A stretch of 64,000 nt of DNA from Halichondria panicea (Eukaryota; Porifera; Demospongiae; Suberitida; Halichondriidae), in NCBI RefSeq assembly GCF_963675165.1, contig NC_087393.1, positions 4,921,702-4,985,701 on the forward strand, given 5' to 3'. The notes beneath the pieces were generated by a model. That model was not told the DNA's origin and searched no databases. It saw only the letters and a list, made by a program, of their open reading frames with translations. Positions 33,511 through 61,296 of this stretch are shown here, one piece after another. Every line of letters begins with the position of its first letter. Position 1 is the first letter of the stretch. The position numbers were made by a program, and so were the translations under genes.

Positions 33511-36164
33511 TGTCTCCATGGTAATTATTTAGGACCCATAGTTAATCTTAAGGTATTCGCACTAGGGAACCATTGTGGTTATGTAACATTCTGGGTTGTA
33601 CCTTTATGCCTTTATGCCTTTATGCCTTTATGTGTCAAGGTGTTGTAACATGTGCTGTAGGTTTCCATGGATATGAGTTGGCAACACATGTGCTGTAGAT
33701 TTCTATGGTAGTAGTGAGGTCATTTGTAAACTGACCTTTGGTAGGCTGCAATGACTGTGAGACTTTTTTTTATGGGTTTCACCACATTGCTTTCCCAGCT
33801 TCCTTGTTTATTTTAGACCTTCATAGATTATTAACTACTGTTGACGACTGCTGGTGTTAGTGAAGTGAGCACGTATCTCGGATAGGGTAGCCGATGGATA
33901 ACAGTAAGGATTGTTTTCTGTGGGGGGGGTGTGACCACTGTTTCCAAATACTTTGTGTCATAGATATGTTTGTCACGCTTTTATTAACAATAATAAGTTA
34001 TATAATTATAGTCTGACAGTGTAACTATAACACTCCACTAGTTGTGGGGCTCCAATTTCATTGGGTTTTCGAAACTTAAGAATGTCCAATTTCAAAACAG
34101 CATCTTTTAGTAGTAGTGCTACAATATGGTGTGGTGCTTAGATCAGTGATTAATTTCGGGCCCAAATTTCCCAAAAAGCGTAGGCTATATATAATTATAT
34201 AAGTAGGGCCTGTTTTTCAGAGCTTAGAAGGAGCTCTTTCAAATCAATTTTTGATCCAATGTCAGCAACCATGGGCTATATAATTATTACACATTGTCTT
34301 TTGCCGAAAATGAGAATTTTGGATGTGTTGTAAGGTTAAGGACACCGTTTGAAAGAGCTCCTTCTAAGTGTTTAGAAAAAAATCAAAAAATCAGAAAATT
34401 GAATCGTTGTAATTAACACAAGTAATGGCTGCTGTATTAATTATGTATACGTACACTGTTCACGTAAATTTGTAGTCGTCTAGGCACTGGCAATATTCAT
34501 ATTAATATCTGTTTCCCATATTTCTTTTCAATATCTATTTCCAACACATATCTTTCTCATGAGGGAGTTCAGAGCAAAAAATAACATGAGACGCGCAAGC
34601 CGTCACTGTTGCATGGCCAACGGTAGACTGGTCACACTCTGTGTAGAGACTCGTGTTGCACAGTCAGCATATCAGATAAGATTCTAAGTGGCTGCGGTTT
34701 TTTTGACGTCAGTATACTGCACGTGATACCTAGTGCTATGTCACTATCAATGATCTTGTGGTCACCACATGGCGTCTAGCCACTTGAGTTGCCACAAATT
34801 ATCGTGACAAACGTTGCAGGAGTCTCTACACGGAGTGTGACCAGTCTACTGTTTGCCGTGCAACAGTGATGGCTTGCGAGTCTATGAATTCCATATCATT
34901 GCAATCAATTAATTAATTGGTTCTTCTATTCATTACTGTCTCTGATATTGGTATTATTAGTCACATGATCTGTTGTTGTGGGAAAACGTGTGCACCCACT
35001 AGGTCATTAATTACTGACAAACTACCTTTAGCCTAACAAGGTAGATCACACAGTGTCTTGTCAGTCACTGTGCTCTGGTAGTCACCCCAGTGTCTCTAGT
35101 TAATTACTACCTATTATGCACTATACATTGCTAACCTTCCTGAGGCCATACCTTTGATTCATTAGGGACCTAAAAAATCGATTGAGCCAGTTAGCACAAA
35201 TGTTGATTCTCAGAAACATTAGCCTTAGAAACATCAGGCAGCTTGAAGAGTGAGCTTGCTAGCAGGACAGAGCCTTATAGCCAGAACACTGTCTGTTAGA
35301 ATGATATATAACTGTTCATGGTATACAGCGGGTGTATTTCGAGGGTATAAATGTTCGTGGTTTTCGCTGATCAAGCATCTACCGCGAACATTTATTCCCA
35401 TTAATTTATATCGCATATGCATGCTGTAAAAAGGCTGCTATTCCACGAAAATTAAATCCGCGAAAACCTTTCTAATGGTCGTTCCGCGAAAGTTGATACC
35501 CACGAATATACCCGTGGTTGGTTGTGCAACAAGAACTGGAACTCCTTCTGTGAACGCAGTATCTGCACATGAGCATAAATATACACACGATATTAATACA
35601 GGCCAATAGCAAATGCTCACATTAGACAGCTTTCTTTGTAGCCTCTGATTTTCCAGTTTCAGAGAACTCCTATAGGCTGTATGGTAATTAGTCCATCTTA
35701 ACCTGCCTGCATATTCTACATGTAATTTGCGGCGTTTGTTTTTACCAGGCCACAAGAATGGAGGAGCTCATGCTTGTACTCTTCTATGATTATAACTGGA
35801 GCACTAAAGTTCAAACCCTCGGCTGGAAGCTTTAACATCAAAATCTGCCACTATTTTAAAACTGATAACTTGTTGTGTGGAGGCTATCCATGCACTGTAA
35901 ACGCAGCTCTATGGTATCTAGGTGAGCAGGCTCAGAAATTACAAACAAACAAACCAGCCAAATACTATACCCGGCTGGCCTCGGCCTCGGGTTAGTAATT
36001 GTCCACTGAGAAACAGATATTGGATATAATTATTGGCACAACAGAACCCCTAGAGGTGCACACCATGTTAGTCTTGGGAGCTTTATAATCTTATAAATAT
36101 TTACTAAAAGGAAGATCAAAGCCTAACTAATTTGACTGTATGCATATGTCGTGTCTGTATACCG

Positions 36165-45067: not shown

Positions 45068-45171
45068 AGTGACTTTAGTACGAAAGCACAGGCCACGCCC
45101 ACTTATCTTTAGTGTTTAATGCTGATTCAGCATTTTAAGTCTCAAAATGACCTTTGTCCAGGTCATTAATT

Positions 45172-45179
45172 TGACGTCA
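45172..45179. promoter_or_regulatory. cAMP response element TGACGTCA (distal)
   Basis: Perfect CREB/ATF palindrome, 65 bp upstream of the PKA RI start codon. Confidence 0.7.
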
Positions 45180-45200
45180 TTTTAGACATAGCTCTTCAAC

Positions 45201-45208
45201 TGACGTCA
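45201..45208. promoter_or_regulatory. cAMP response element TGACGTCA (proximal)
   Basis: Second perfect copy, 29 bp (just under three helical turns) from the first and 36 bp before the PKA RI start codon. It may fall in the 5' UTR if transcription starts upstream of it. Confidence 0.7.
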
Positions 45209-45243: not shown

Positions 45244-48200
45244 ATGGCGAGTCGTACACAAGTGAGTGTTCAAGACTGCGAGGATTACATCGAGCAGCAT
45301 GGCGTCCAGGCCATTCTCAAGGAGTGTATAGCCAAGATATGCCAGACCCGACCAGAGAGACCCTACAGATGGCTCAGGGAGTACTTCGAGAAGCTCGAAA
45401 AAGTGGGTAGCTACTGTACTAGTAGCTAGCTAGCTGTGTATATCTGACCACCATACATCCACTGGAGAAGCATATTTAGTAGCAATACACTTATTTGCAG
45501 ATAACTATGTATACCTACACGTATAGGAGATACATGTACAATAGTACGAGACAGTTTCTATAAATTGGTCATTCTGTGTTTCCTTGCTGTGCATATTCAG
45601 TGTAAGTTGTTGACGTGTGTATTACTGCATTAAGTATGCTCCTATGAGACCACACCCCCTTCTTCAGGAGCATCCCGAGGTGTCCACACCTGACGTGGAT
45701 GTAGCCACTCCGTTGCAGAAACCTCGTAGCAGGAGGGGGGCTGTGAGTGCCAGCGTGATGACGGAGGAGCAGGCAACCAGCTATGTCAAGAAAGTGAGTT
45801 TGTCTCTAACCCTGCACCTGCCACTATAAATAGAGTATTATTATAATGTCTGCAAAGGAGTCAACTACACACCGTGTGTCTGTCCGCCCAGTTGTGTAGC
45901 ACAGTAATAATAATAATTACGTTTGTGGCTGATTTGAGTAGCTATTCTTCCTAGGTCATTCAGAAATAAGATCATTATATAATTATATCATTGGAATACT
46001 GTTTTTGGTCCACTTTGTGGTACATGTATAATTATACTTATGTCATGGCTAATAACCTTTTGTAGGAAAGCACATTCCGTTCAAATTGTTAACTTTGGCA
46101 CTAGAGTCACTAGTGATAGCTGTAGTGTACTGTAGCGTGAAGTGTCTACTTGATTGTGCAGAACCCTGAAAGTAAACTGACCCTTGTGTAGATTATGTAC
46201 ACATGTAAGTATGACACTCTATGACTCAGATGACTCAGTTGCCCACATTGGTGACCTATCAATTCCTGTGGTTTGCACTTTTACAAACCATATCAAGTTA
46301 GCACACCATAACTTGACCTTGTGCTCTTTGATAGCCCAATTATTTGTCATATCTGTAGTAACGTTCACTGGAAAATTATCCTTAAAACTGTTGCACTAAT
46401 TGGTCCCCTGAAATAGTCATAGGAGATACAGAAGTTCCAATGGCTCAAGGAAAATTGTTATGTAAATGTTTGCTCTCTGTAGGTTATGCCCAAGGACTAC
46501 AAAACAATGGCCGCCCTCGAGAAGGCTATTGAGAAAAACATTCTGTTCTCACATCTGGACGAGGATGAGAGGAGGTGGGTGGGTGTGTCTGTAGTGGGCG
46601 TGGTGAACTTGTTACTGCTAGTCTACAATGTATGTATACAATTCTACTGGAGCTAAGTATAGTGATCAGGGAAGCAGAAGTTATGTACACGCATGTCCAC
46701 CTGTGTTAACATGTGAACAAACTCTTTATTTCACTGTCACTTGTTTCTTTAAAATGTGTGCCATGTTTTATGAGTGTCGACTTCATTTTTGCAGTGATAT
46801 TTTTGATGCCATGTTCTTAGTCAGAGAAGTGGCTGGAAAAACCATCATTCAGCAAGGTGGGGCTCATCTCCATGGAGATACCAGCAGCTATATATCCATT
46901 TGTATAATTAGGAAAGCTCTGAGCAAAGCCAGAGATGTTAATTTGACTCGTGACCTTGTAAAAGTTGTTTGGGTGCTTAGTTACGATATGTGTGTATCAT
47001 TAAAAGTACAGAAACTTAATACATTATAAATATTGTGAACTTTGCTCTTTGATTGACTGCATGTCATTTCTGCAGGTGATGAGGGAGACAATTTCTATGT
47101 CATTGACTCGGGAGAGGTGGATGTAAGTATGTGTTATTGTAGCCCTCTAATCTTGTAATCGCTCTACCACTTGTGATCGCTCGAGTGTGTTTATATGAAC
47201 TATAAGTGTTTATTTGACCTTCCAAAGACTGTTTGAACTTGAAGCCATAATCCCTAACTAAATAATTATGATAATCATTGTATTTCAGAGTATTCTGTTT
47301 GTGAGCACTTGTTAGTTGTATACCTCCTATGATGCTGTAAACATTACTTCCTTCTAGATCATCGTGAACAAGGATTATTTTGGCTCCATTGGAGAGACGG
47401 GAAGTTTCGGTGAGCTTGCCCTGATCTACGGTACTCCCAGGGCAGCGACCATCAGAGCCAAGACCGATGTCAAGCTATGGGCAATTGACCGCGACTCATA
47501 TCGTCGCATTCTCATGGGGAGCACCATCAGAAAAAGGAAACTGTACGAAACTTTCCTCGAGAAGGTCTCCATCTTAGGTCAGTGGTATTATTTTGTCTTG
47601 TTGCTTTAAAATGTGAAGAGTGTAATACAAAATTGATATTCTCCATGAGACTGAAACTATGGAGGTACAGGTAATTAGCAACAAAGTTCATTCAGTGCAA
47701 AACCGTAGAATTACACAAGTGTACATGTACATACATAGCTGTAGGCAGTCTGTTAGATATAACTGACACTTAATTCTCTGTGTAAGTCTGTTGAGATTGA
47801 TTGCTCACTGTATATATATATTGTAGAGTCTTTGGACAAATGGGAGCGGTTGACGGTGGCCGACGCCCTCGAGCCGTGTACCTTCCATGACGGGTCATTC
47901 GTGGTCACTCAGGGAGAGTCTGGGGAGGAGTTCTTCATCATCGTGGAGGTGAAGGGTCAGCTAGCTACTTAATTACCAGTGGTCCCTCCTCCTTTCTTCC
48001 TCACCATCTCCACTGTCTCTTCCTTTCTTTCCATACTTTAGCCTACCATCAGCACATTCTGTGATATAGTGTACAGTAACATGTATGAATTATAGCAAAC
48101 ACTAAACCCTGCCCCCCTCCCCACATACACACACACACACACACACCCTCAGGGCAGTGCCATTGTGCTCCAGAGGAAGACAGAGGATGGAGAGTACGTG

Positions 48201-49116
48201 GAGGTCGGTCAGCTGGGACCATCCGACTATTTTGGTGAGCTAACTAGACTGGCACTTCAATTATGATTAAATCAGCAATTTTTTCGAGTCCAAATAGACA
48301 AATAAGTGAGTAAATGGACCTATTTTCGGAGCTAACTTTTAGAGGCCATAACTTGAGTTAGGAACGTCAACGTAGCTGCTTGATGTGTGGGTGTGGGTGT
48401 GGGGGTATTGTAATTGCATTCTCTATAGTTACCAATAATAGCAGCCTTTTGTAATTGAAGTACGTGTAGTATTAGACTTCACGTTGCAGATACACGTCTC
48501 TGTATGTAGTTCATGTCTACAGCTTTGAATGACTCCTAAGACTTCACGTTGCAGATACACGTCTCTGTATGTAGTTCATGTCTACAGCTTTGAATGACTC
48601 CTAAGTATGTGCCTTTAGACCTGTCTCTGTATGTAGTTCATGTCCACAGCTCTGAATGACTCCTAAGTATGTGCCTTTAGACCTTTTACTTGTGCACTTG
48701 TTAATAATTAAACGCACAAAATTATTTAGTATTACAATTAATGCATGTCTACGTATATGCAGTCTTTAGTGATTCCTTCCATACAATGTATGTGCAATTT
48801 ACCCGGCCTCTATTGAACTTGTGACCTTTGTTCACAATACCCCCTAATGTACGATATAGCCTTAAAACCTCCATTCACAATACCCCCTCCCTACATGTAC
48901 GATGTGTACGTCTATTCACAATACCCCCCCCCCCTGTATCCAGGTGAGATTGCCCTGCTGTTGAAGCGACCCAGAGCCGCCACAGTTACAGCCAAGGGCA
49001 CTCTCAAATGCGTCAAATTGGACCGCTCCCGTTTTGAGCGTGTTTTGGGTCCCTGTCAGGACATCTTGAAGCGCAATATCAGTCAGTACAACAGTTTTGT
49101 GCAGCTGGTTGTGTGA
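45244..49116 (+). CDS. PRKAR1A: cAMP-dependent protein kinase type I regulatory subunit
   Basis: Exons 45244-45402, 45668-45793, 46483-46574, 46795-46856, 47076-47122, 47358-47577, 47827-47948, 48153-48234, 48944-49116 give 360 residues. The N-terminal dimerisation/docking helix bundle keeps two cysteines 21 residues apart (12 and 33), matching the RI-type interchain disulfides. The inhibitor site RRGAV at 75-79 is a pseudosubstrate, Ala at the phospho-acceptor position marking type I. Cyclic-nucleotide domain A has [14 protein letters not shown] (Glu181, Arg190); domain B has [14 protein letters not shown] (Glu305, Arg314); both phosphate-binding cassettes are intact. It holds PKA catalytic subunits inactive until cAMP binds. 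About 20 residues shorter than human RI-alpha in the linkers; vertebrate alpha/beta orthology cannot be assigned. A poly(A) signal AATAAA sits at 49316. Confidence 0.95.
48475..48690. repeat. 65-bp tandem repeat, two full copies and a partial third
   Basis: GACTTCACGTTGCAGATACA starts at 48475 and 48540; the CTGTATGTAGTTCATGT segment recurs a third time near 48625, followed by a repeated CTCCTAAGTATGTGCCTTTA. Located in intron 8 of the PKA RI gene. Confidence 0.9.
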
Positions 49117-49628: not shown

Positions 49629-50978
49629 CTAGTGGTCAGTGTACAGAGGTTCCGGGATGACAGACACAGTCACCCACTTGCCCTTCCTCACCACCGCCAT
49701 CTCTAGTCTCTCTCCTCTCTGCACCAGCTCGTTCACATCTCGACTCGAATGCACATTCTTACCGTTTATTCTCACAATGATGTCTCCAGTGCGTAGACCT
49801 GCTTGAGCGGCAGCACTGTTGGCCCAGACATTAGCCAGGAACACACCATGAGTGAGATCACGAGGTAGAGATATTTTCTGGAGAAGGACTCGTAAAATTC
49901 GGGGATTTATCGACAGCATTGAAACACCGAGAGCATATTTGGTGGCTTTCGCTTGTTTTTTCACAGTTTTTACGGCCTTTTCAACAAAATTCTGAGCAAA
50001 ATCACTTGGAATAGCGAATGAGATTCCAGGTCCAGCTGTCATAGTGTTTACACCGATGACCTCTCCGTCTAGATTGACAAGTGGCCCACCAGAGTTGCCG
50101 TGGGTGATGGGAGCGTCCGTCTGTACATACTCCATATCGGGCTTGTGTTGTTCCAGACCCAACTCTCTGCTCGGGCGAAGGACACTGCTAACAATGCCGG
50201 CTGTAATCGTATTGGTCAGATTTAGAGGGCTGCCCAAGGCCACCACCCATTCCCCGGGTCTTAGCAACGACGAATTTCCGAATTTCACAGCTGTAAGTTT
50301 CTCGTTTCCAGAGAGTTCTAGTTTGATTAAAGCCAGATCAGAGATTTGATCGATATCAGTCACTTCTCCTTTCACGACACGTCCGGTTGATAGCTTGACT
50401 TGAACTGAGCGGGAGTTAGCGACAACATGAGCATTTGTGAGAACGTATCCACCATTGTGAACGATAAAGCCGGAGCCAGAGGACACACCCACCATCTCTC
50501 CGAATATAGTCGTGACCCGCTGAGATTTCTCAATGTAGACAACACTAGGAGATGCAATTTCAACAGCTTCGGCTAGAAAATTGAAACGCTGTGATCGACC
50601 GTCGGAGCAGTGTGCTATAGAGAATGGAAATGTTTCGTTCTTGTTTATCTTAAATATTGCAAATATCGACAGTGAGAGTCCGAATAAACCAAAGCCAACC
50701 AATCGAAATAAAGGATTGTTTTTCCCTCTATGATCTTGATCGTATGTATCCGCTGTAGAACGATAGACACCATTATTTAACCTACCCAATCGATCAGTCA
50801 CTAGACGACTATTCTGAGTGTCGTATTGCCAGTGCAGAAAGGAACTTGACGCTGCAGAGAATTGAAGATATGGAATAAACATCGCTCTGTTGGTAATTGT
50901 AAGTACCCTCACACATGTCAAGGGCCTCAGCATATTGCTGCAATTGAGAGCTGCATTGATTCTTAGTAGAGACAACAT
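49629..50978 (-). CDS. HTRA2: HtrA-family mitochondrial serine protease, HTRA2-like
   Basis: Single exon, 449 residues. The basic, hydroxyl-rich N-terminus looks like a mitochondrial presequence, and residues about 92-108 form a membrane anchor, as in HTRA2. The trypsin-like domain follows (SSGSGFIVHNGGYVLTNAHV) with catalytic His184, Asp214 and Ser296 (GNSGGPLVNLDGEVIGVNT). A C-terminal PDZ domain runs from about 360 to 445 (AGLRTGDIIVRINGK). HTRA2 acts in intermembrane-space protein quality control (family knowledge). No AVPS-like IAP-binding tetrapeptide is visible after the anchor (FSIAHCSDG), so a Reaper-type pro-apoptotic role is not supported. Intronless, unlike neighbouring SUZ12, with which it shares a 170-bp divergent promoter. 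Confidence 0.92.
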   Translation of the reverse strand: MLSLLRINAALNCSNMLRPLTCVRVLTITNRAMFIPYLQFSAASSSFLHWQYDTQNSRLVTDRLGRLNNGVYRSTADTYDQDHRGKNNPLFRLVGFGLFGLSLSIFAIFKINKNETFPFSIAHCSDGRSQRFNFLAEAVEIASPSVVYIEKSQRVTTIFGEMVGVSSGSGFIVHNGGYVLTNAHVVANSRSVQVKLSTGRVVKGEVTDIDQISDLALIKLELSGNEKLTAVKFGNSSLLRPGEWVVALGSPLNLTNTITAGIVSSVLRPSRELGLEQHKPDMEYVQTDAPITHGNSGGPLVNLDGEVIGVNTMTAGPGISFAIPSDFAQNFVEKAVKTVKKQAKATKYALGVSMLSINPRILRVLLQKISLPRDLTHGVFLANVWANSAAAQAGLRTGDIIVRINGKNVHSSRDVNELVQRGERLEMAVVRKGKWVTVSVIPEPLYTDH

Positions 50979-51148
50979 TTGGAGCAGCTAGCTATAGATC
51001 TATAACAGAGGGATCTAGGCTGAAGCTGCATAAGTTGCATAAGTGACAATTACGTCAAGGTGGTTTATTTATCACATTAGCTGCAAGCCTAGCCCACCCC
51101 AAACGCTGATATAGCATGCATTCTGCCTTTTGGGCCCACAATAGAAGA
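50979..51148. promoter_or_regulatory. 170-bp bidirectional promoter, HTRA2 / SUZ12
   Basis: The only sequence between divergent start codons. It contains a half CRE (TTACGTCA) near 51050 and an AGATCT-centred palindrome near 50997. No TATA box is placed convincingly. Confidence 0.6.
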
Positions 51149-53932: not shown

Positions 53933-56900
53933 CCACACACACACACACACACACACAGGCTTTGTTGAGTGGGAACAAGAAAGCGTTCCACTGCAGCTGC
54001 TTGAGTCTCGGCAAACGAGTGATTGGATTTGATGAGACTAGCGACGACGACAATCGAAGCAAGAAAACAAACTTGTATCTCCCACTTTCGATCCCGGAGA
54101 GTTCGTTGACATGGAAACACCGACTGAACCCCGGTGGCACTCAAATGATTGTATTTAGAGCTAGTCAGTACGTCCCTAAAGCCGCCTCTTCTACGAGAAA
54201 ATGTACGCGGTGGAGAAATCGTCGGAAAAACTCTGCTCAAAACAAAAAAAGGACCAGTGCTAATAAGGACGATACGACAGCTTCTACAAAAGCTACAAAT
54301 GCCTCTTCTTTAACCGATGCTGCTACTTTGTTGAGAAATGGCACTTCTCTCGTGTCTAGTAATGCCAGGTCAGCAAGAGGAGAACTGCAAGCTCAGCAAA
54401 CAGATGTAACTATGTGTGAATCTGTAGTACGCTCAGTAAAATCAAACAGGGCAAAAAGGAAGCCAGAGACTCGAGATGCTTGTGTAATGACAGACTTACA
54501 GTTTGGGATTGAGTGCATTAATGAACTTACCCCCCTTTACCAATCTAGCATGCAAACCAAATCTCCAAACGACCCAATCAAAGAATCTTCTTCCTCGCAT
54601 TTACAAAATGGCAATTCTTGTCACTCTAAACCCTCCTCTCCCCCTCCCAACAGAAGTAGATCAACCTCCCCACACCTCTCAAGACATGATAAGTGTACCT
54701 CCCCTCTCGTGTCAAAGCTGGCTCTACAAAATGGCGTCGTCAACGGCTTGTCAATGAAAGGCTATGCCTCTCCAACCGTAGCTGCAATTAGGAAAAACGT
54801 GAGACAACGAAAGAGAACGAAACGAAAACCTTATACGAGAACTAAGACAACAAATTCTAAAATCACCGCGCACAAAATTCAATCTACCCCTCCCACTGCA
54901 CACCCGCCCACACAAGACGACCTCACCCGCAAAAAACTGTCTCGTAAAATTCCCAACAAACTTGGATCGGGAAAACATGGAATTCGTTCCTTTCTCATCT
55001 CTATCCCTCGCACACACTATATCGAGAAACCCACGACCACCAGCCCTCAGGGCTTTCTTCCGAAAAGCAACGATGAAGGATACAAAAATGTCGTCCGCAG
55101 TCCCGGCTATAGAAGACGAACAGAGATCCAGCTGCTCCTAGACGGAGACAAGCCTAGAGGTCAAAGAGTCCGAGCCGATCAGGTGCCCAAGTTCGTGGCA
55201 GAAGACGTTACAAGTTGGTCGACAAAGTCGTCATGCATGGGCAGTAGCACGCGCAAGATCACACCGGTGGATCATTATTCGTGTCCAATCCTTTCTCCGA
55301 AAAGTAACGCTAGTAGCACATCGCCCAATCACAGGAAGAGATCTCATAGCGAAGACTATTTCAATATTACTTCTCCAAATCAAGATCAACAACCGCCACA
55401 GAAATTCTCTCGTCTTACGAGTCCGTCGGATTCTGTTGCTACTACGTCGAGCACAGCTATAGATAAGCAAGCCAATCTTTTAGCTCCGACTGATCGAGAT
55501 TCAACAGCTGATGAAGATTGTTGTACTGATAATGAATGTACTGCTGATGTTGATGTGTGTATTCAGCCCAATGACGTGTTTTGTGCCGAGCTGGTTTTAT
55601 TTGATTCCCGTGGTGACTGTCTCCTTGGCGATGGTGAGTATGCTGTGATGATGCAGAAGTGCCTGGAGAGTGGAGAGAAGGAAGCGGCAGAGCTCCTGAC
55701 CTTTGAACCTCTCACCTGGAGCTCCGTGTTTAGTGGCAAAGCTCATGTGAGTGTACATTGTATTATCATTGCTTGCACCTTTCGTTAAAATATTGTCATT
55801 TTTTCATTCTCATACTTTTAGGAACAGTTTTTTGCTGTGTCTGAAAGTGTATTACATTGCTAAAAAATTTAGCAATGTCCCAATTTTCTTCAGCGTGATT
55901 CTGCGTCCAACAAGAACAAGAACCTGTTACTCAAGTTCTCTCTGAACTGGACAGACGGTCCCCCACAGCACCTCCTCTGTAGTAACCTGGATACTGCGCT
56001 CGACCTCAAGAAAATCAGGGAATGTAAGACTTCAATGCTGTTGAAACATTTTGGGATGTGTGTGTGTGTGATTCCGTGGTGTAGTTGGTTATCACGTGAG
56101 TCTAACACACTCAAGGTCCCCGGTTCAATCCCGGGTGGAATCACTTTTTAGTCTACCCAAATGCGAGCCATTGCACTTTTCTAGCTGTTTTATTTTAATT
56201 ATGGATCGGTCGTACGTCCCTTATAATGTGATAGCAGTTGATTTCGTGGTGTAGTTGGTTATCACGTGAGTCTAACACACTCAAGGTCCCCGGTTCAATC
56301 CCGGGTGGAATCACCTTTTAGTCTACCCAAATATGAATTGATGTTGCATTTTTCTAGCTGTTTAATATTAATTATGGATCGGTCGACGTCACTTATAACA
56401 TGATAGCAGTTGATTCCGTGGTGTAGTTGGTTATCACATGAGTCTAACACACTCAAGGTCCCCGGTTCAATCCCGGGTGGAATCACATTTTAGTCTACCC
56501 AAATATGAATGGCCGTTGCATTTTTCTAGCTGTTTAATATTAATTATGGATTGGTCGACGTCCCTTATAACATGATAGCAGTTGATTCCGTGGTGTACAT
56601 GTAGTTGGTTATCACGTGAGTCTAACACACTCAAGGTCTCCGGTTCAATCCCTGGTGGAAGCACCTTTTAGTCTACCCAAATGCCATTGGCTGTTATTAT
56701 GGATCGGTCGTACGTCACTTATAACATGATAGCAGTTGATTCTGTGGTGTAGTTGGTTATCACATGAGTCTAACACACTCAAGGTCCCCGGTTCAATCCC
56801 GGGTGGAATCACCTTTTAGTCTACCCAAATATGAATTGATGTTGCATTTTTCTAGCTGTTTAATATTAATTATGGATCGGTCGACGTCACTTATAACATG

Positions 56901-59900
56901 ATAGCAGTTGATTCCGTGGTGTAGTTGGTTATCACATGAGTCTAACACACTCAAGGTCCCCGGTTCAATCCCGGGTGGAATCACCTTTTAGTCTACCCCA
57001 AATATGAATGGCCGTTGCATTTTTCTAGCTGTTTAATATTAATTATGGATTGGTCGACGTCCCTTATAACATGATAGCAGTTGATTCCGTGGTGTAGTTG
57101 GTTATCACGTGAGTCTAACACACTCAAGGTCTCCGGTTCAATCCCTGGTGGAAGCACCTTTTAGTCTACCCAAATGCCATTGGCTGTTATTATGGATCGG
57201 TCGTACGTCACTTATAACATGATAGCAGTTGATTCTGTGGTGTAGTTGGTTATCACATGAGTCTAACACACTCAAGGTTCCCAGTTCAATCCCGGGTGGA
57301 ATCACTTTTTAGTCTACCCAAATGCCATTGGCTGTTATTATGGATCGGTCGTACGTCACTTATAACATGATAGCAGTTGATTCTGTGGTGTGGTGTAGTT
57401 GGTTATCACATGAGTCTAACACACTCAAGGTCCCCGGTTCAATCCCTGGTGGAACCACTTTTTGGAGAACCTAATTAACTATATAATACCTTTTTACCTC
57501 TAGCGTACTACTTATCACTATCTCCATCTCCGAGACCACTCTCCCCCGTCCCTCCCATAATCGAGCACCTAAACTCGGACTCACAAGATTCGAGCATGCT
57601 CACTGCAACAGAAAATGGCGTCCCAGTGACTGCTCTCTTCCCGGCTGAGACCACAGACTCGCAAACTCTCATGGAGGTGGACACACTCTCGTCTCTAAGC
57701 CAGCCCCCCTCACTGGAGAAAGAGAAGATACTGTTCAACTTTCTCTATGGCAGCAACAGCTTACAGCAGACTGAGTGCAAAGAAGACCTGCATTGTCCGT
57801 GGTGCTTCATTCCCTGTGTCAAGTTCTACACTTTGCTCAAGCATATGTCACTGTGTCATCCCCGCTTCCAGTTTACCTACTCTGTGAGTGTTTGTGTGTC
57901 TGCGTATGTGTAGTGTGTGTGTGTGTGTAGTGTGTGTGTGTGTAGTGTGTGTTTTTGTGTCTGTCCGTACGTATGTGTGCTGTGTGCATGTGTATGTGTT
58001 GCCATGGTGTTTGTCTATGTGTATGTGTTGCCATGGTGTTTGTCTATGTGTATGTGTCCCTACATTGAGCATGTGGGTGTAGTCGTGACTGGTTCTGCTC
58101 TGTCATTCAACAATGCTACATGTATGATGACATGCACTGTGTTACAGCATATCAATCCTCTGCATTTTTAAAGTACTAGAGTCGGCTGTTTAAATATAAC
58201 TTTTCCCCCACCTATAGCCCACGGTATTTTCTCAATAGGCCTCAACAAGTTTTATCCTACCATTTAAAAGAGTTCACATCAAGTTTTCAGAATAATTATC
58301 ATAATAAAAGTGTTGACATTGGAACATCAGAACTCCCGTTATGGTTGCTCAAAGGTTCCCTTGTAGCAAGACACTCAGCGCACACTCCTAATGACCTAGC
58401 TTTGTATCTCCCATACACAGCTGAGTCAACAGAAGGCCAAGGTGATTGATGTCCATGTGAATAAACTGTACGACACGAGTAGCTCAATAGAGCGTGACCC
58501 GGGTGAAAAGGACAATCTGAGTCTTGTGAAGATGAAACAGCGGCCAGCCAAGAGCTTCTCTTGCACCTGCGTCCTTGTTGACAGGTGTGTTAGTACTCAG
58601 TGGTCTGTTTGTCGGTAAATAATCATTACATATCGTTGTCATGGTTTCTGTGTCCCTCCTTTTATCCTATATAGTCTGCCAGAGCCAGTAATTATACTGA
58701 ACCTTTAAGCTTTGTAAGAATCTCATCTAGTACGTACTGTACGCTGCAGTGCAGTAGATGCGTTTTTGCAGTAGATGTACTCTTGCTATTGAAAAGCCAC
58801 ATGCTAATAATTATAATTATGCTTCTTTACAGTATGCTAGAATAATTATTAGCAGCTGCTATTACATAATCACCCTCTCTTGTACGCTCACAGAGGAGTG
58901 GATATTGAAGAGGACGTGTCAGAGTTTATGAATGATGGCTCCTGGAGAAGAGGCTACAACACGAACAGGTGAGAAACGCTCTACTGTGTGTGTGATTGTG
59001 CAGCCTCTGTAGCTCAGCGGTTAGAGCACTGGTCTTGTAAACCAGGGGTCGAGAGTTCAAATCTCTCCGGAGGCTTTCTTTTTGCTTAGTACGCTGGTCT
59101 GTTTGTCCATAGATAGAGTAGAGAGGGATTGGAAATGGAAGTGATTCACGTGATGTTTTACAATGAAGTCTATGTAGTGGCTCTGGGACCATCCGTGTAT
59201 CTCCTCATAACTCCCGCAAAAGCTCGGGAAACTTATTGTGTCCAAAGCATACATCTCAGAGCTACCCCCATTACTGAATCACATGCCCCCTGATAGTAGG
59301 TATCAATTGGAAACGAAGAAAATATAATCTCGATTGTTGTGAAGTAGCTAGAAGCACTGAGCGCTTTTCATGCTTGTGTTCCTATAGAACCTATGATATA
59401 ACTAAGGCTGTGTAACTAAATAGTGTCCTGTGTCCCAAATGACCTCGAGTATGAGATGAAAGTTGATGTTTAGCAGCAGAACTGCTTGTGGACTTCTTAC
59501 AGAGAGCAAAACAATTCTCATGAATTTAGCCCTCGTGTTAAAAAGTAAGCCTCGATTAAACCGCGGAGATACACGGATGGTACTTCGAGGGTACTTCCGT
59601 TTCTAATCCCTCTCTACTCTATCTATGGTTTGTCTAAGTCAGCTTACAATAATTCTCATTTTGGTTGTGTATAAAGCCTCTGTAGCTCAGGGGTTAGAGC
59701 ACTGGTCTTGTAAACCAGGGGTCGGGAGTTCAAATCTTTCTAGAGGCTTTCTTTTTGCTATAGTACGCTGGTCTGTTTGTCTAAGTTAATATTCCCAGCT
59801 TACAATAATTCTCATTTTGGTTGTGTGTGTAGCCTCTGTAGCTCAGGGGTTAGAGCACTGGTCTTGTAAACCAGGGGTCGGGAGTTCAAATCTCTCCGGA

Positions 59901-61296
59901 GGCTTTCTTTTTGCTATAGTACGCTGGTCTGTTTGTCTAAGTTAATATTCCCAGCTTACAATAATTCTCATTTTGGTTGTGTGTGTAGCCTCTGTAGCTC
60001 AGGGGTTAGAGCACTGGTCTTGTAAACCAGGGGTCGGGAGTTCAAATCTCTCCGGAGGCTTTCTTTTTGCTATAGTACGCTGGTCTGTTTGTCTAAGTTA
60101 ATATTCCCAGCTTACAATAATTCTCATTTTGGTTGTGTGTGTAGCCTCTGTAGCTCAGCGGTTAGAGCACTGGTCTCGTAAACCAGGGGTCGAGAGTTCA
60201 AATCTTTCTAGAGGCTTTCTTTTTGCCACTGACACCAACTTTTGAAGTTTCTTTTTACATGTGCATGTATGTCAGGACCATTTTGAACCAAAGCCTTACT
60301 CGTTGCCTTCCATGTGAAGCCTCTGTAGCTCAGTGGTTAGAGCACTGGTCTTGTAAACCAGGGGCCGAGAGTTCAAATCTCTCCAGGGGCTTATTTTTTT
60401 AACACGTACCTTATTTATACTAATGACGTAATTACCTCCCTTGATCCTTGATTCCCTCTTCCACAGGATGTACTACCATTTAAACTCAAGCCTGCCCATG
60501 CTTGAGGAAGAGATAAAAGTGGACAGCGAGGGGGAAGAGAGCAATCTTGAGTGGCAGAAGATCTGCTGTCAGAAGGTGAGGGATTCAACACTTCATTTTA
60601 GCCTCGATCCATCTCTATGATGATCTGAGTTATTTTTGAGACTTCTGCTAGCTGTTATTATAATTATTTCCCGTGCAGATGCTCGATGACTTCACTGACG
60701 TGAACAAAGGAGAGAAGAGGCTCATGAAGCTGTGGAACCTCTTCGTCATGGAGAACAAGTGAGTGCATGCCAGCTGTGTTTGTATGTGTAGCTATTGTCA
60801 AAAGCTTGAAGGCTAATTATGCTTAGTCGTTGAATTAACAGGTTAGAAAGTAGCTATTAGTATTGTTGAAGGCCGTGTATGTGCTCCTGAAGATGTACTA
60901 TATCTCAGTCACTAAGTCAGTATTAAAATGTATTGCAAGATTACCTATACTTGCAAGACTAATACTCTTGATTCTAAAAAAAGTCTCTTTGATACATTTT
61001 TACTCTTGTGCCAACTGAATATACAGAAGCTTTTCAAATTTACCCACTGACTTTTTAGTGCAGCATTGCTATGGTAATACACTGTCACCCATTTCCTTGT
61101 GTTCCTATACAGGCTCATTGCAGAGAAGCAGATACCTGCAGCATGTCTACTGTTTGTCAGCAAGTACAAAGAGAACCTTTTGGAGGAGAAAATCGACAGG
61201 AACTTTCTCTCACACCTCATCAGTCAGTACGATTTTGGTTTGATACCATCCTCGACTATTGAACAGTGCATGTCAGCTCTATATGAAAACTCTTAG
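51149..61296 (+). CDS. SUZ12: Polycomb repressive complex 2 subunit SUZ12
   Basis: Exons 51149-51239, 51781-51827, 51943-52013, 52338-52415, 52721-52785, 53295-53410, 53959-55746, 55894-56023, 57504-57883, 58421-58584, 58894-58968, 60467-60575, 60679-60758, 61113-61296 give 1125 residues, frame exact. The N-terminus has AYEKPTQIYRFLRARHSLK, as in animal SUZ12. The C2H2 zinc finger is LHCPWCFIPCVKFYTLLKHM. The VEFS box fills the last four exons (EFMNDGSWRRGYNTNRMYYH, DFTDVNKGEKRLMKLWNLFV, ACLLFVSKYK). SUZ12 scaffolds EZH2, EED and RBBP4 for H3K27 methylation in the nucleus. It is about 390 residues longer than human SUZ12 owing to a Ser/Thr/Pro/Lys-rich insert in the 1.8-kb exon 7, between a SUZ12-like segment (FHCSCLSLGKRV) and FCAELVLFDSRGDCLLGDGE. 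Introns 8 and 11 host tRNA arrays. Confidence 0.94.
51658..51743. repeat. 43-bp tandem duplication in SUZ12 intron 1
   Basis: Two copies of TGCTACTCTCATACAAGGCA... at 51658 and 51701 with a few differences, shortly upstream of the exon-2 acceptor. Confidence 0.9.
52850..53110 (+). repeat. Dispersed AT-rich repeat in SUZ12 intron 5
   Basis: It contains GAGTGGCCATAACTTTTGAT, CTGAAAGCTCTCAGTGAGCT, TTCCCCACCTATAGCC and a later GAACTTTGATTTTAACCCAC. The same words in the same order occur at 58180-58370 and, reversed, at 44395-44555. Confidence 0.7.
53497..53619. mobile_element. 123-bp foldback element in SUZ12 intron 6
   Basis: Arms 53497-53533 and 53583-53619 (AGAGGAGGTCTGACATGCGT...) are mirror images over 37 bp with three mismatches around a 49-bp loop. 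Confidence 0.75.
53879..53957 (+). repeat. (CA)n tract forming the acceptor of SUZ12 exon 7
   Basis: CACACA units with minor breaks run straight into AG at 53957-53958. Translating through it in frame gives a His-Thr run joined to the exon, which is not protein. Confidence 0.92.
56070..56143 (+). tRNA. tRNA-Val(AAC), unit 1
   Basis: Full cloverleaf: acceptor GATTCCG pairs with TGGAATC, anticodon stem TGAGT/ACTCA with loop CTAACAC (anticodon AAC), intact T-arm CCCGGTTCAATCCCGGG. A T-run follows at 56145. Located in SUZ12 intron 8, sense orientation. Confidence 0.92.
56240..56313 (+). tRNA. tRNA-Val(AAC), unit 2
   Basis: As unit 1 with one acceptor change (GATTTCG, giving a T-G pair). The TTATAA upstream element and T-run downstream are present. 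Confidence 0.88.
56412..56485 (+). tRNA. tRNA-Val(AAC), unit 3
   Basis: Intact cloverleaf; one change near the D-arm/anticodon junction (CACATGAG for CACGTGAG). Upstream CTTATAACATGATAGCAG. Confidence 0.9.
56584..56663 (+). pseudogene. Degenerate tRNA-Val unit 4
   Basis: It has a 6-bp insertion in the D region (GTACATGTAG), a damaged T-arm (CTCCGG...CCTGG) and an acceptor 3' strand GGAAGC that no longer pairs fully. The anticodon stem-loop is intact. Probably non-functional. Confidence 0.8.
56738..56811 (+). tRNA. tRNA-Val(AAC), unit 5
   Basis: Intact fold with acceptor GATTCTG (T-G wobble). Its spacers match those of units 2 and 8, marking a three-unit duplication. Confidence 0.88.
56910..56983 (+). 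tRNA. tRNA-Val(AAC), unit 6
   Basis: Intact; same sequence type as unit 3, 498 bp downstream of it. Confidence 0.9.
57083..57156 (+). pseudogene. Degenerate tRNA-Val unit 7
   Basis: It shares the T-arm and acceptor damage of unit 4 (CTCCGG...CCTGGTGGAAGCA) but lacks the D-region insertion, so the damage predates the block duplication. Confidence 0.78.
57231..57304 (+). tRNA. tRNA-Val(AAC), unit 8, weakened T-arm
   Basis: The acceptor pairs with wobble. The T-arm reads CCCAGTTCAATCCCGGG, creating an A-C mismatch next to the loop. May be marginal. Confidence 0.7.
57379..57457 (+). pseudogene. Degenerate tRNA-Val unit 9
   Basis: It has a 5-bp duplication in the 5' part (GTGGTGTGGTGTAG) and a mismatched acceptor 3' strand (GGAACC). 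The last unit before SUZ12 exon 9. Confidence 0.75.
58180..58370 (+). repeat. Dispersed AT-rich repeat in SUZ12 intron 9
   Basis: TTCCCCCACCTATAGCCCAC, AGAGTTCACATCAAG, TTTTCAGAAT and TATGGTTGCTCAAAG follow the order seen at 52970-53120 in intron 5 of the same gene. Confidence 0.65.
59003..59075 (+). tRNA. tRNA-Thr(TGT), unit 1
   Basis: Acceptor GCCTCTG/CGGAGGC, D-arm TAGCTCAGCGGTTAGAGCA, anticodon loop CTTGTAA (TGT), T-arm GAGAGTTCAAATCTCTC. Located in SUZ12 intron 11, sense orientation. Confidence 0.93.
59108..59627. mobile_element. 520-bp inverted-repeat element inserted in a tRNA-Thr spacer
   Basis: Ends CATAGATAGAGTAGAGAGGG and its mirror are perfect over 20 bp; homology continues inward (CCATCCGTGTATCTCC). 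Flanking GTTTGTC is duplicated (59101-59107 and 59628-59634). Sister spacers at 59749-59831 and 59905-59987 show the uninterrupted site, which proves the boundaries. No transposase-like frame. Confidence 0.85.
59676..59748 (+). tRNA. tRNA-Thr(TGT), unit 2
   Basis: Anticodon loop CTTGTAA. The T-arm contains G-T pairs (GGGAG/CTTTC); acceptor GCCTCTG/TAGAGGC. A plausible fold, weaker than unit 1. Confidence 0.85.
59832..59904 (+). tRNA. tRNA-Thr(TGT), unit 3
   Basis: Intact cloverleaf; identical to unit 4 including the GTGTGTA leader and CTTTCTTTTTGC trailer. Confidence 0.93.
59988..60060 (+). tRNA. tRNA-Thr(TGT), unit 4
   Basis: Identical to unit 3, 156 bp downstream. The shared spacer shows a recent tandem duplication. 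Confidence 0.93.
60144..60216 (+). tRNA. tRNA-Thr(CGT), unit 5, anticodon-switched
   Basis: Same backbone as its neighbours, but the loop is CTCGTAA, giving anticodon CGT (reads ACG). The T-arm CTTTC and acceptor TAGAGGC match unit 2. The amino-acid identity stays threonine. Confidence 0.87.
60319..60391 (+). tRNA. tRNA-Thr(TGT), unit 6
   Basis: Intact fold with acceptor GCCTCTG/CAGGGGC. The flanks differ from units 2-5, so it is the most diverged or oldest member. Confidence 0.92.

What the first reader, a model, noticed from the sequence alone, without database searches (positions are those of the whole stretch)
45172..45208. Two perfect CREs in the 176-bp promoter of a PKA regulatory subunit
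TGACGTCA occurs twice (45172-45179 and 45201-45208), 29 bp apart, between TVP23 and the PKA RI gene. A perfect 8-mer twice in 176 bp is very unlikely by chance. If CREB binds here, PKA would induce its own inhibitor, a negative feedback loop, and the Golgi gene TVP23 would be co-regulated from the same element. The basis is a sequence observation plus the known CRE consensus; binding is inference.
Basis: partly seen in the sequence, partly recalled or inferred. Interest (0 to 1): 0.75.

Follow-up and report, generated by a model that had tools for sequence, protein, structure and literature searches.

The report
Paired cAMP-response elements before PKA-RI
An animal genome carries two perfect CREB-type binding sites in the short stretch shared by a protein kinase A inhibitor gene and a Golgi gene, and the same genome encodes a CREB that PKA could switch on, so a PKA self-braking loop with precedent in human cells is plausible here but unproven.

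Summary
Observation confirmed: TGACGTCA at 45172-45179 and 45201-45208, in the 176 bp between the start codons of TVP23 (minus strand) and a genuine PKA type I regulatory subunit. Two in 176 bp has P of 3e-6 to 1e-5 locally, but 0.07-0.24 over an assumed 25,000 promoters. The genome (131 Mb) has 3,426 copies; 19 of 20 sampled on one contig were repeat-borne. Close pairs (gap 15-87) number 25, against 28 for the reversed control; 4 of the 25 are not obvious repeats, and of these two (this one included) lie clearly upstream of a start codon, a third doubtfully. New here: the genome encodes a CREB orthologue with a CREB1-like DNA-reading stretch and a kinase-inducible domain with the PKA-type site (ARRPSFKKILDDLSS), so both protein ends of the proposed loop exist. 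Against: a type II-like docking-exon gene has no such site in its 3.1-kb locus, conservation could not be tested, and there are no transcription, binding or cAMP data. A CRE in PRKAR1A, its forskolin induction and CREB's preference for bidirectional promoters are published for human cells. New member of a known kind: probably real CREB/ATF sites, feedback plausible but unshown.

The parts
45172..45179 (.). CRE 1, TGACGTCA (palindrome); 64 bp before the RI start codon, 104 bp before the TVP23 start codon
45201..45208 (.). CRE 2, TGACGTCA; 35 bp before the RI start codon, 133 bp before the TVP23 start codon
45068..45243 (.). 176-bp stretch between two head-to-head start codons (putative bidirectional promoter); one match, itself, in the genome; CpG observed/expected 0.85 (6 CpGs, 2 of them in the CREs) against 0.54 for the window; no TATA[AT]A, CCAAT or GGGCGG on either strand
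45244..49116 (+). PKA type I regulatory subunit, 9 exons, 360 aa, pseudosubstrate RRGAVSAS; last three bases are the stop codon
43551..45067 (-). TVP23 (Pfam DUF846), coding exons joined partly by eye; the 3' limit is approximate
45120..45132 (.). TGCTGATTCAGCA, resembles a Maf recognition element (recalled motif); the same 13-mer occurs 421 times in the genome, in most of the examples fetched with flanks shared between copies
45148..45165 (.). TGACCTTTGTCCAGGTCA, resembles a nuclear-receptor element (recalled motif); its first 13 bases are not enriched in the genome

Best explanation
The two sites are probably real binding sites for a CREB/ATF-type bZIP dimer in a compact bidirectional promoter. 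Placed 35 and 64 bp before the RI start codon, they most likely act mainly on the PKA RI gene. Inferred chain: cAMP frees PKA catalytic subunit; it phosphorylates the serine in ARRPSF of CREB; CREB on the two CREs recruits its coactivator and raises RI; RI re-captures catalytic subunit and damps the signal. Shown: the DNA sites, both genes, a CREB gene with a PKA-type site in its KID and a CREB DNA-binding region. Inferred: occupancy, phosphorylation, induction, damping, any effect on TVP23.
For: Sites exact and in a stretch with a single match in the genome. Of 25 close pairs with gap 15-87 (2, 17, 6), 21 are tandem or inverted repeats by reading; of the other 4, two lie upstream of a start codon that I read (RI; a tetraspanin-like gene, L030) and a third doubtfully so (L056). 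CREB orthologue: bZIP aligned to human CREB1 in PDB 5zko at 1.7e-24, with identical KNREAARECRRKKKEYV; pKID Pfam match 33.6 bits against a cut-off of 25. Human precedent: a CRE in PRKAR1A proved by ChIP, as reported second-hand in PMC2762058 (passages); PRKAR1A transcript raised to 188% by 10 uM forskolin (PMC3154895, passages); CREB strongly prefers bidirectional promoters (PMC2774331, passages); sponge CREBs have a KID (PMC4736632, passages).
Against: Pair numbers are not above chance: 25 raw pairs against 28 for the reversed pattern (2, 17, 6 against 5, 12, 11; the control pairs were not inspected for repeats); 4 non-repeat pairs against 6.5 expected if all 3,426 sites are placed at random, 1.8 at the dinucleotide rate. 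One of the 4 lies inside a coding frame (L055). The pair was picked after reading 64 kb. No TGACGTCA in the 3,108-bp locus of the type II-like docking exon and none in 13.1 kb around CREB (its first exon not located). 1 uM forskolin did not induce human PRKAR1A. Conservation not testable here (searches found no relative).
Confidence: 0.47

Rival explanations
1. The sites are real but constitutive: CREB/ATF-family dimers support a housekeeping bidirectional promoter, with little or no cAMP induction and so no meaningful feedback.
For: RI and TVP23 are broadly needed genes (established knowledge). In a human reporter study of 7 CREB-bound bidirectional pairs, two (histone genes) were constitutively high in both directions and two showed no induction by forskolin (PMC2774331, passages). 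The type II-like gene is not CRE-marked.
Against: In the same study the majority of the pairs had very low activity in untreated cells, which speaks against a constitutive role. Human PRKAR1A is inducible by 10 uM forskolin (PMC3154895). No expression data for this genome.
Confidence: 0.33
2. Chance: two 8-mers that look like CREs and do nothing.
For: Genome-wide, 0.07-0.24 double-site promoters expected for an assumed 25,000 promoters; pairs are no more numerous than the reversed control (25 against 28) or, without repeats, than random placement; 19 of 20 sampled TGACGTCA on C1 are repeat-borne.
Against: Both lie in a stretch that matches nothing else in the genome, within 72 bp of the start codon of a gene type that is a reported CREB target in human.
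Confidence: 0.23
3. The sites serve TVP23: a CREB3/CrebA-type membrane-bound bZIP factor or another secretory-stress factor uses them to raise Golgi capacity, and RI is a bystander.
For: Two bZIP loci on C7 (L026, L027) read as CREB3-like, with a hydrophobic segment after the zipper (the CREB3 label is recalled, Pfam says only bZIP_1). CrebA/CREB3 control secretory genes (recalled).
Against: The sites are nearer RI (35 and 64 bp) than TVP23 (104 and 133 bp), and the full palindrome is the CREB/ATF1 optimum while CREB3/ATF6 sites typically read TGACGTGG (recalled).
Confidence: 0.1

Closest known systems
Human PRKAR1A promoter as a CREB target
   Same: A CRE in the promoter of the same gene type (PKA RI); said to be ChIP-proved in the literature comparison of PMC2762058 (passages) and forskolin-induced in KRJ-I cells (PMC3154895, passages).
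   Different: Here there are two perfect palindromes in 176 bp and a head-to-head Golgi neighbour; nothing has been measured. I had no human sequence to compare.
CREB-bound bidirectional promoters (HaloCHIP-chip study, PMC2774331, passages)
   Same: CREs at promoters between two divergent genes; 60.7% of the top 1% CREB-bound human promoters were bidirectional.
   Different: [quoted passage not shown] occupancy here is unknown.
Negative feedback loops of cAMP signalling through CREB (PDE4, CREM)
   Same: CREB-driven expression of a damper of the pathway (CREB listed for PDE4B, PDE4C, PDE4D and CREM promoters in PMC2762058; the feedback role is recalled).
   Different: The damper is the PKA regulatory subunit, which re-inhibits the kinase rather than removing cAMP or blocking CREB.

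Membership tests
CREB-responsive (CRE) promoter | Full palindromic CRE TGACGTCA | tested here: met
   two exact copies
CREB-responsive (CRE) promoter | Location within about 250 bp of a transcription start (recalled rule) | tested here: inconclusive
   within 72 bp of the RI start codon; transcription starts not mapped
CREB-responsive (CRE) promoter | A CREB whose DNA-contacting region is conserved | tested here: met
   C14 locus, 1.7e-24 to human CREB1 in 5zko, KNREAARECRRKKKEYV identical
CREB-responsive (CRE) promoter | PKA-phosphorylatable KID in that CREB | tested here: met
   ARRPSFKKILDDLSS across two exons, pKID 33.6 bits, cut-off 25; phosphorylation itself not testable. The genome-wide pKID search found nothing, probably because an intron splits the domain
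CREB-responsive (CRE) promoter | CREB occupancy in vivo | not testable with these tools
   no chromatin data
CREB-responsive (CRE) promoter | cAMP-induced transcription that needs the CREs | not testable with these tools
   no expression data
CREB-responsive (CRE) promoter | Conservation of the sites in relatives | not testable with these tools
   no relative of the gene found in two collections, one of viral and one of prokaryote contigs; one search states that this genome has no relatives held
Bidirectional promoter | Two divergent genes with starts under 1,000 bp apart | tested here: met
   start codons 176 bp apart; transcription starts not mapped
Bidirectional promoter | Both genes transcribed from the shared stretch | not testable with these tools
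   no RNA data
PKA type I regulatory subunit | N-terminal docking domain, RRG-type pseudosubstrate, two cNMP domains | tested here: met
TVP23 family | DUF846/TVP23 domain over most of the protein | tested here: met
   PF05832, 1.5e-44, profile positions 1-139 of 139 (exon joins partly by eye)

The most novel reading that the evidence does not exclude
PKA inducing its own RI inhibitor through promoter CREs is ancestral to animals, kept from early-branching lineages to human PRKAR1A, with a Golgi trafficking gene here tied to the same element.
Probability: 0.1. Interest if true: 0.6.

Novelty: new member of a known kind. Interest (0 to 1): 0.28.

Why it matters
If CREB really drives RI here, a negative feedback suggested by human-cell data would extend to an early-branching animal (if the sponge attribution holds), making the age of cAMP-pathway self-control testable by comparing RI promoters across phyla. 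As it stands it is a good reporter-assay candidate, not a discovery.

Tried and rejected
Nuclear-receptor reading of TGACCTTTGTCCAGGTCA: the 13-mer TGACCTTTGTCCA occurs 4 times in the genome (4 + 0) against 6 (1 + 5) for the reversed control: no enrichment. Composite AGGTCA plus CRE, suggested by a similar arrangement in L056: AGGTCA-N0-12-TGACGTCA 20 (12 + 8) against 36 (19 + 17) for the control: rejected. MARE-like TGCTGATTCAGCA: 421 copies (218 + 203) against 0 for the reversed control, which holds CpGs and is a poor control; of 20 loci fetched, by eye 18 share flanks with another copy or hold an inverted pair, L039 and L040 do not, so repeats explain much of it. Promoter enrichment of single CREs: 20 CRE-centred and 20 offset stretches on C1; 19 of 20 CRE stretches and 13 of 20 offset stretches matched other loci fetched. 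My start-codon score could not separate real starts (RI scored 7.2, reached by 23% of 1,000 random window positions; medians 3.7 for CRE and 2.5 for offset stretches, none at 10 or more), so the test has no power and I draw nothing from it beyond the repeat count. Phylogenetic footprint: no relatives found. pKID genome search gave 0, which would have argued against CREB; reading the exons found the domain split by an intron. Passages of PMC7160059 on human RII-beta were seen and not used.

For these I lowered the main confidence from 0.50 to 0.47, raised chance from 0.20 to 0.23 and lowered the constitutive rival from 0.35 to 0.33 (a passage cited for it partly speaks against it).

Full report
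Observation. They lie in 176 bp between the TVP23 start codon (45067, minus) and the PKA RI start codon (45244, plus). I rebuilt RI as nine exons, all eight introns with GT and AG ends, giving 360 residues with the RRGAVSAS pseudosubstrate; it matches human RI-alpha chains at 1.5e-166 and carries the docking domain and two cNMP-binding stretches. The neighbour matches DUF846/TVP23 over the whole profile (exon joins partly by eye). CRE1 ends 64 bp and CRE2 35 bp before the RI start codon; the centres are 29 bp apart, about 2.8 helical turns, so two dimers would not sit on the same face of the DNA (10.5 bp per turn, recalled).

Chance. The genome has 3,426 TGACGTCA in 131.46 Mb; the reversed control ACTGCAGT, which lacks a CpG, has 3,571. 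Two in 176 bp has P = 9.7e-6 at that rate, 2.6e-6 at the dinucleotide rate; times an assumed 25,000 promoters, 0.24 or 0.07. Many sites are repeat-borne: 19 of 20 CRE-centred stretches sampled on contig C1 matched other loci fetched, against 13 of 20 offset stretches (this end of C1 may be repeat-rich and unrepresentative), and the third site of the window sits between 67-nt inverted arms. In 83,747 bases of loci not chosen for a CRE there is 1.

Pairs. I searched the whole genome for pairs with gap 15-25 (2 found, control 5), 26-56 (17, control 12) and 57-87 (6, control 11): 25 in all against 28 for the reversed pattern, whose pairs I did not inspect. By reading the sequences, 21 of the 25 are in tandem or inverted repeats, some of them overlapping entries of one array. 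The other 4 are: this pair; one 130-181 bp before a tetraspanin-like start codon (L030); one inside a vitellogenin-like coding frame (L055); and one in L056, where three CREs with similar close flanks lie 102-305 bp before a start codon whose fibrinogen-like frame has an in-frame stop after 41 residues, so it may be a broken gene or a wrong reading. Those gene labels and starts are my own reading, not annotation. Four is not more than random placement gives (6.5 for all sites, 1.8 at the dinucleotide rate). That two clearly, and perhaps three, of the four sit upstream of genes is suggestive, no more. Gaps 0-14 were not searched and 88-118 did not complete.

The trans side. With a human CREB1 bZIP query, 3 loci matched. 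The best, on C14, aligns with human CREB1 in PDB 5zko at 1.7e-24 with an identical KNREAARECRRKKKEYV stretch, and also matches 1dh3, a CREB entry. Upstream exons give ARRPSF and KKILDDLSS, which join across an intron to a KID (pKID 33.6 bits, cut-off 25) that aligns with the CREB KID chains 2lxt and 1kdx at weak E-values of 0.021 and 0.025. The intron probably explains why the pKID family search over the genome found nothing. That sponge and ctenophore CREBs carry a KID is already in print (PMC4736632, passages). The other two matches, on C7, read as CREB3-like with a hydrophobic stretch after the zipper (label recalled) and supply a rival factor.

Paralogue check. A type II-like docking exon was found on C13; I did not trace the rest of that gene, so 'RII' rests on this exon alone. 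Its 3,108-bp locus has no TGACGTCA and two half sites (CGTCA at 538 and 2842). So the CRE pair is not a general mark of docking-domain PKA genes here. No TGACGTCA lies in 13,127 bp of the CREB locus (L028 with L025), but its first exon was not located.

What is known. A literature comparison of PKA-pathway promoters states that a CRE in PRKAR1A was identified and proved by ChIP in genome-wide CREB studies (PMC2762058, passages). Forskolin at 10 uM raised PRKAR1A transcript to 188% in a human neuroendocrine line, 1 uM did not (PMC3154895, passages). In human cells CREB strongly prefers bidirectional promoters, and the coactivator TORC1 favoured one direction in 2 of 7 pairs tested (PMC2774331, passages). 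My nine paper searches listed, in capped lists, no paper whose title or abstract start treats CREs in a sponge PKA gene; I opened passages of six or fewer papers per topic and the library lacks most subscription papers, so this is weak evidence of absence.

Verdict. The DNA sites, the two genes and the CREB gene are shown. Occupancy, induction, feedback and TVP23 co-regulation are inferred. I give 0.47 to the pair being functional CREB/ATF sites acting mainly on RI through cAMP as described, of which real feedback strength is the least certain step. The kind is known; the member is new.

Noticed in passing
56738-60392, + strand: Cluster of ten tRNA genes by ARAGORN: four tRNA-Val (AAC), then six tRNA-Thr (five TGT, one CGT); four of the Thr genes start exactly 156 bp apart (Rfam reports 8 tRNAs in the window).
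   Followed up: no
34589-34883: Inverted repeat with 67-nt arms, 90% complementary, 161 nt between; MITE-like; it carries the window's third TGACGTCA.
   Followed up: partly
45120-45132 and 421 places in the genome: TGCTGATTCAGCA recurs far above simple expectation, in several different repeat contexts, often within an extended palindrome or as an inverted pair about 80-140 bp apart. Why one 13-mer is shared by different repeats is unexplained.
   Followed up: partly
L028 with L025 (C14:4144702-4145190 region): An intron splits the CREB KID right after ARRPSF; exon-by-exon family searches over genomes can miss such KIDs.
   Followed up: yes
L026 and L027 (C7:148622 and C7:332380): Two CREB3-like bZIP loci 184 kb apart on one contig, nearly identical by eye over the zipper and the hydrophobic segment: a recent duplication. 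L027 also holds a TGACGTCA at 306.
   Followed up: no
49632-50987, - strand: Long open frame that reads like an HtrA/HTRA2-type serine protease with a PDZ end, tail to tail with RI; named by eye only.
   Followed up: no
L056 (C16:3907999-3911495): Three TGACGTCA at 1701, 1790 and 1896 before a fibrinogen-like frame with an in-frame stop after 41 residues; a similar frame lies just upstream, so the gene seems tandemly duplicated.
   Followed up: partly
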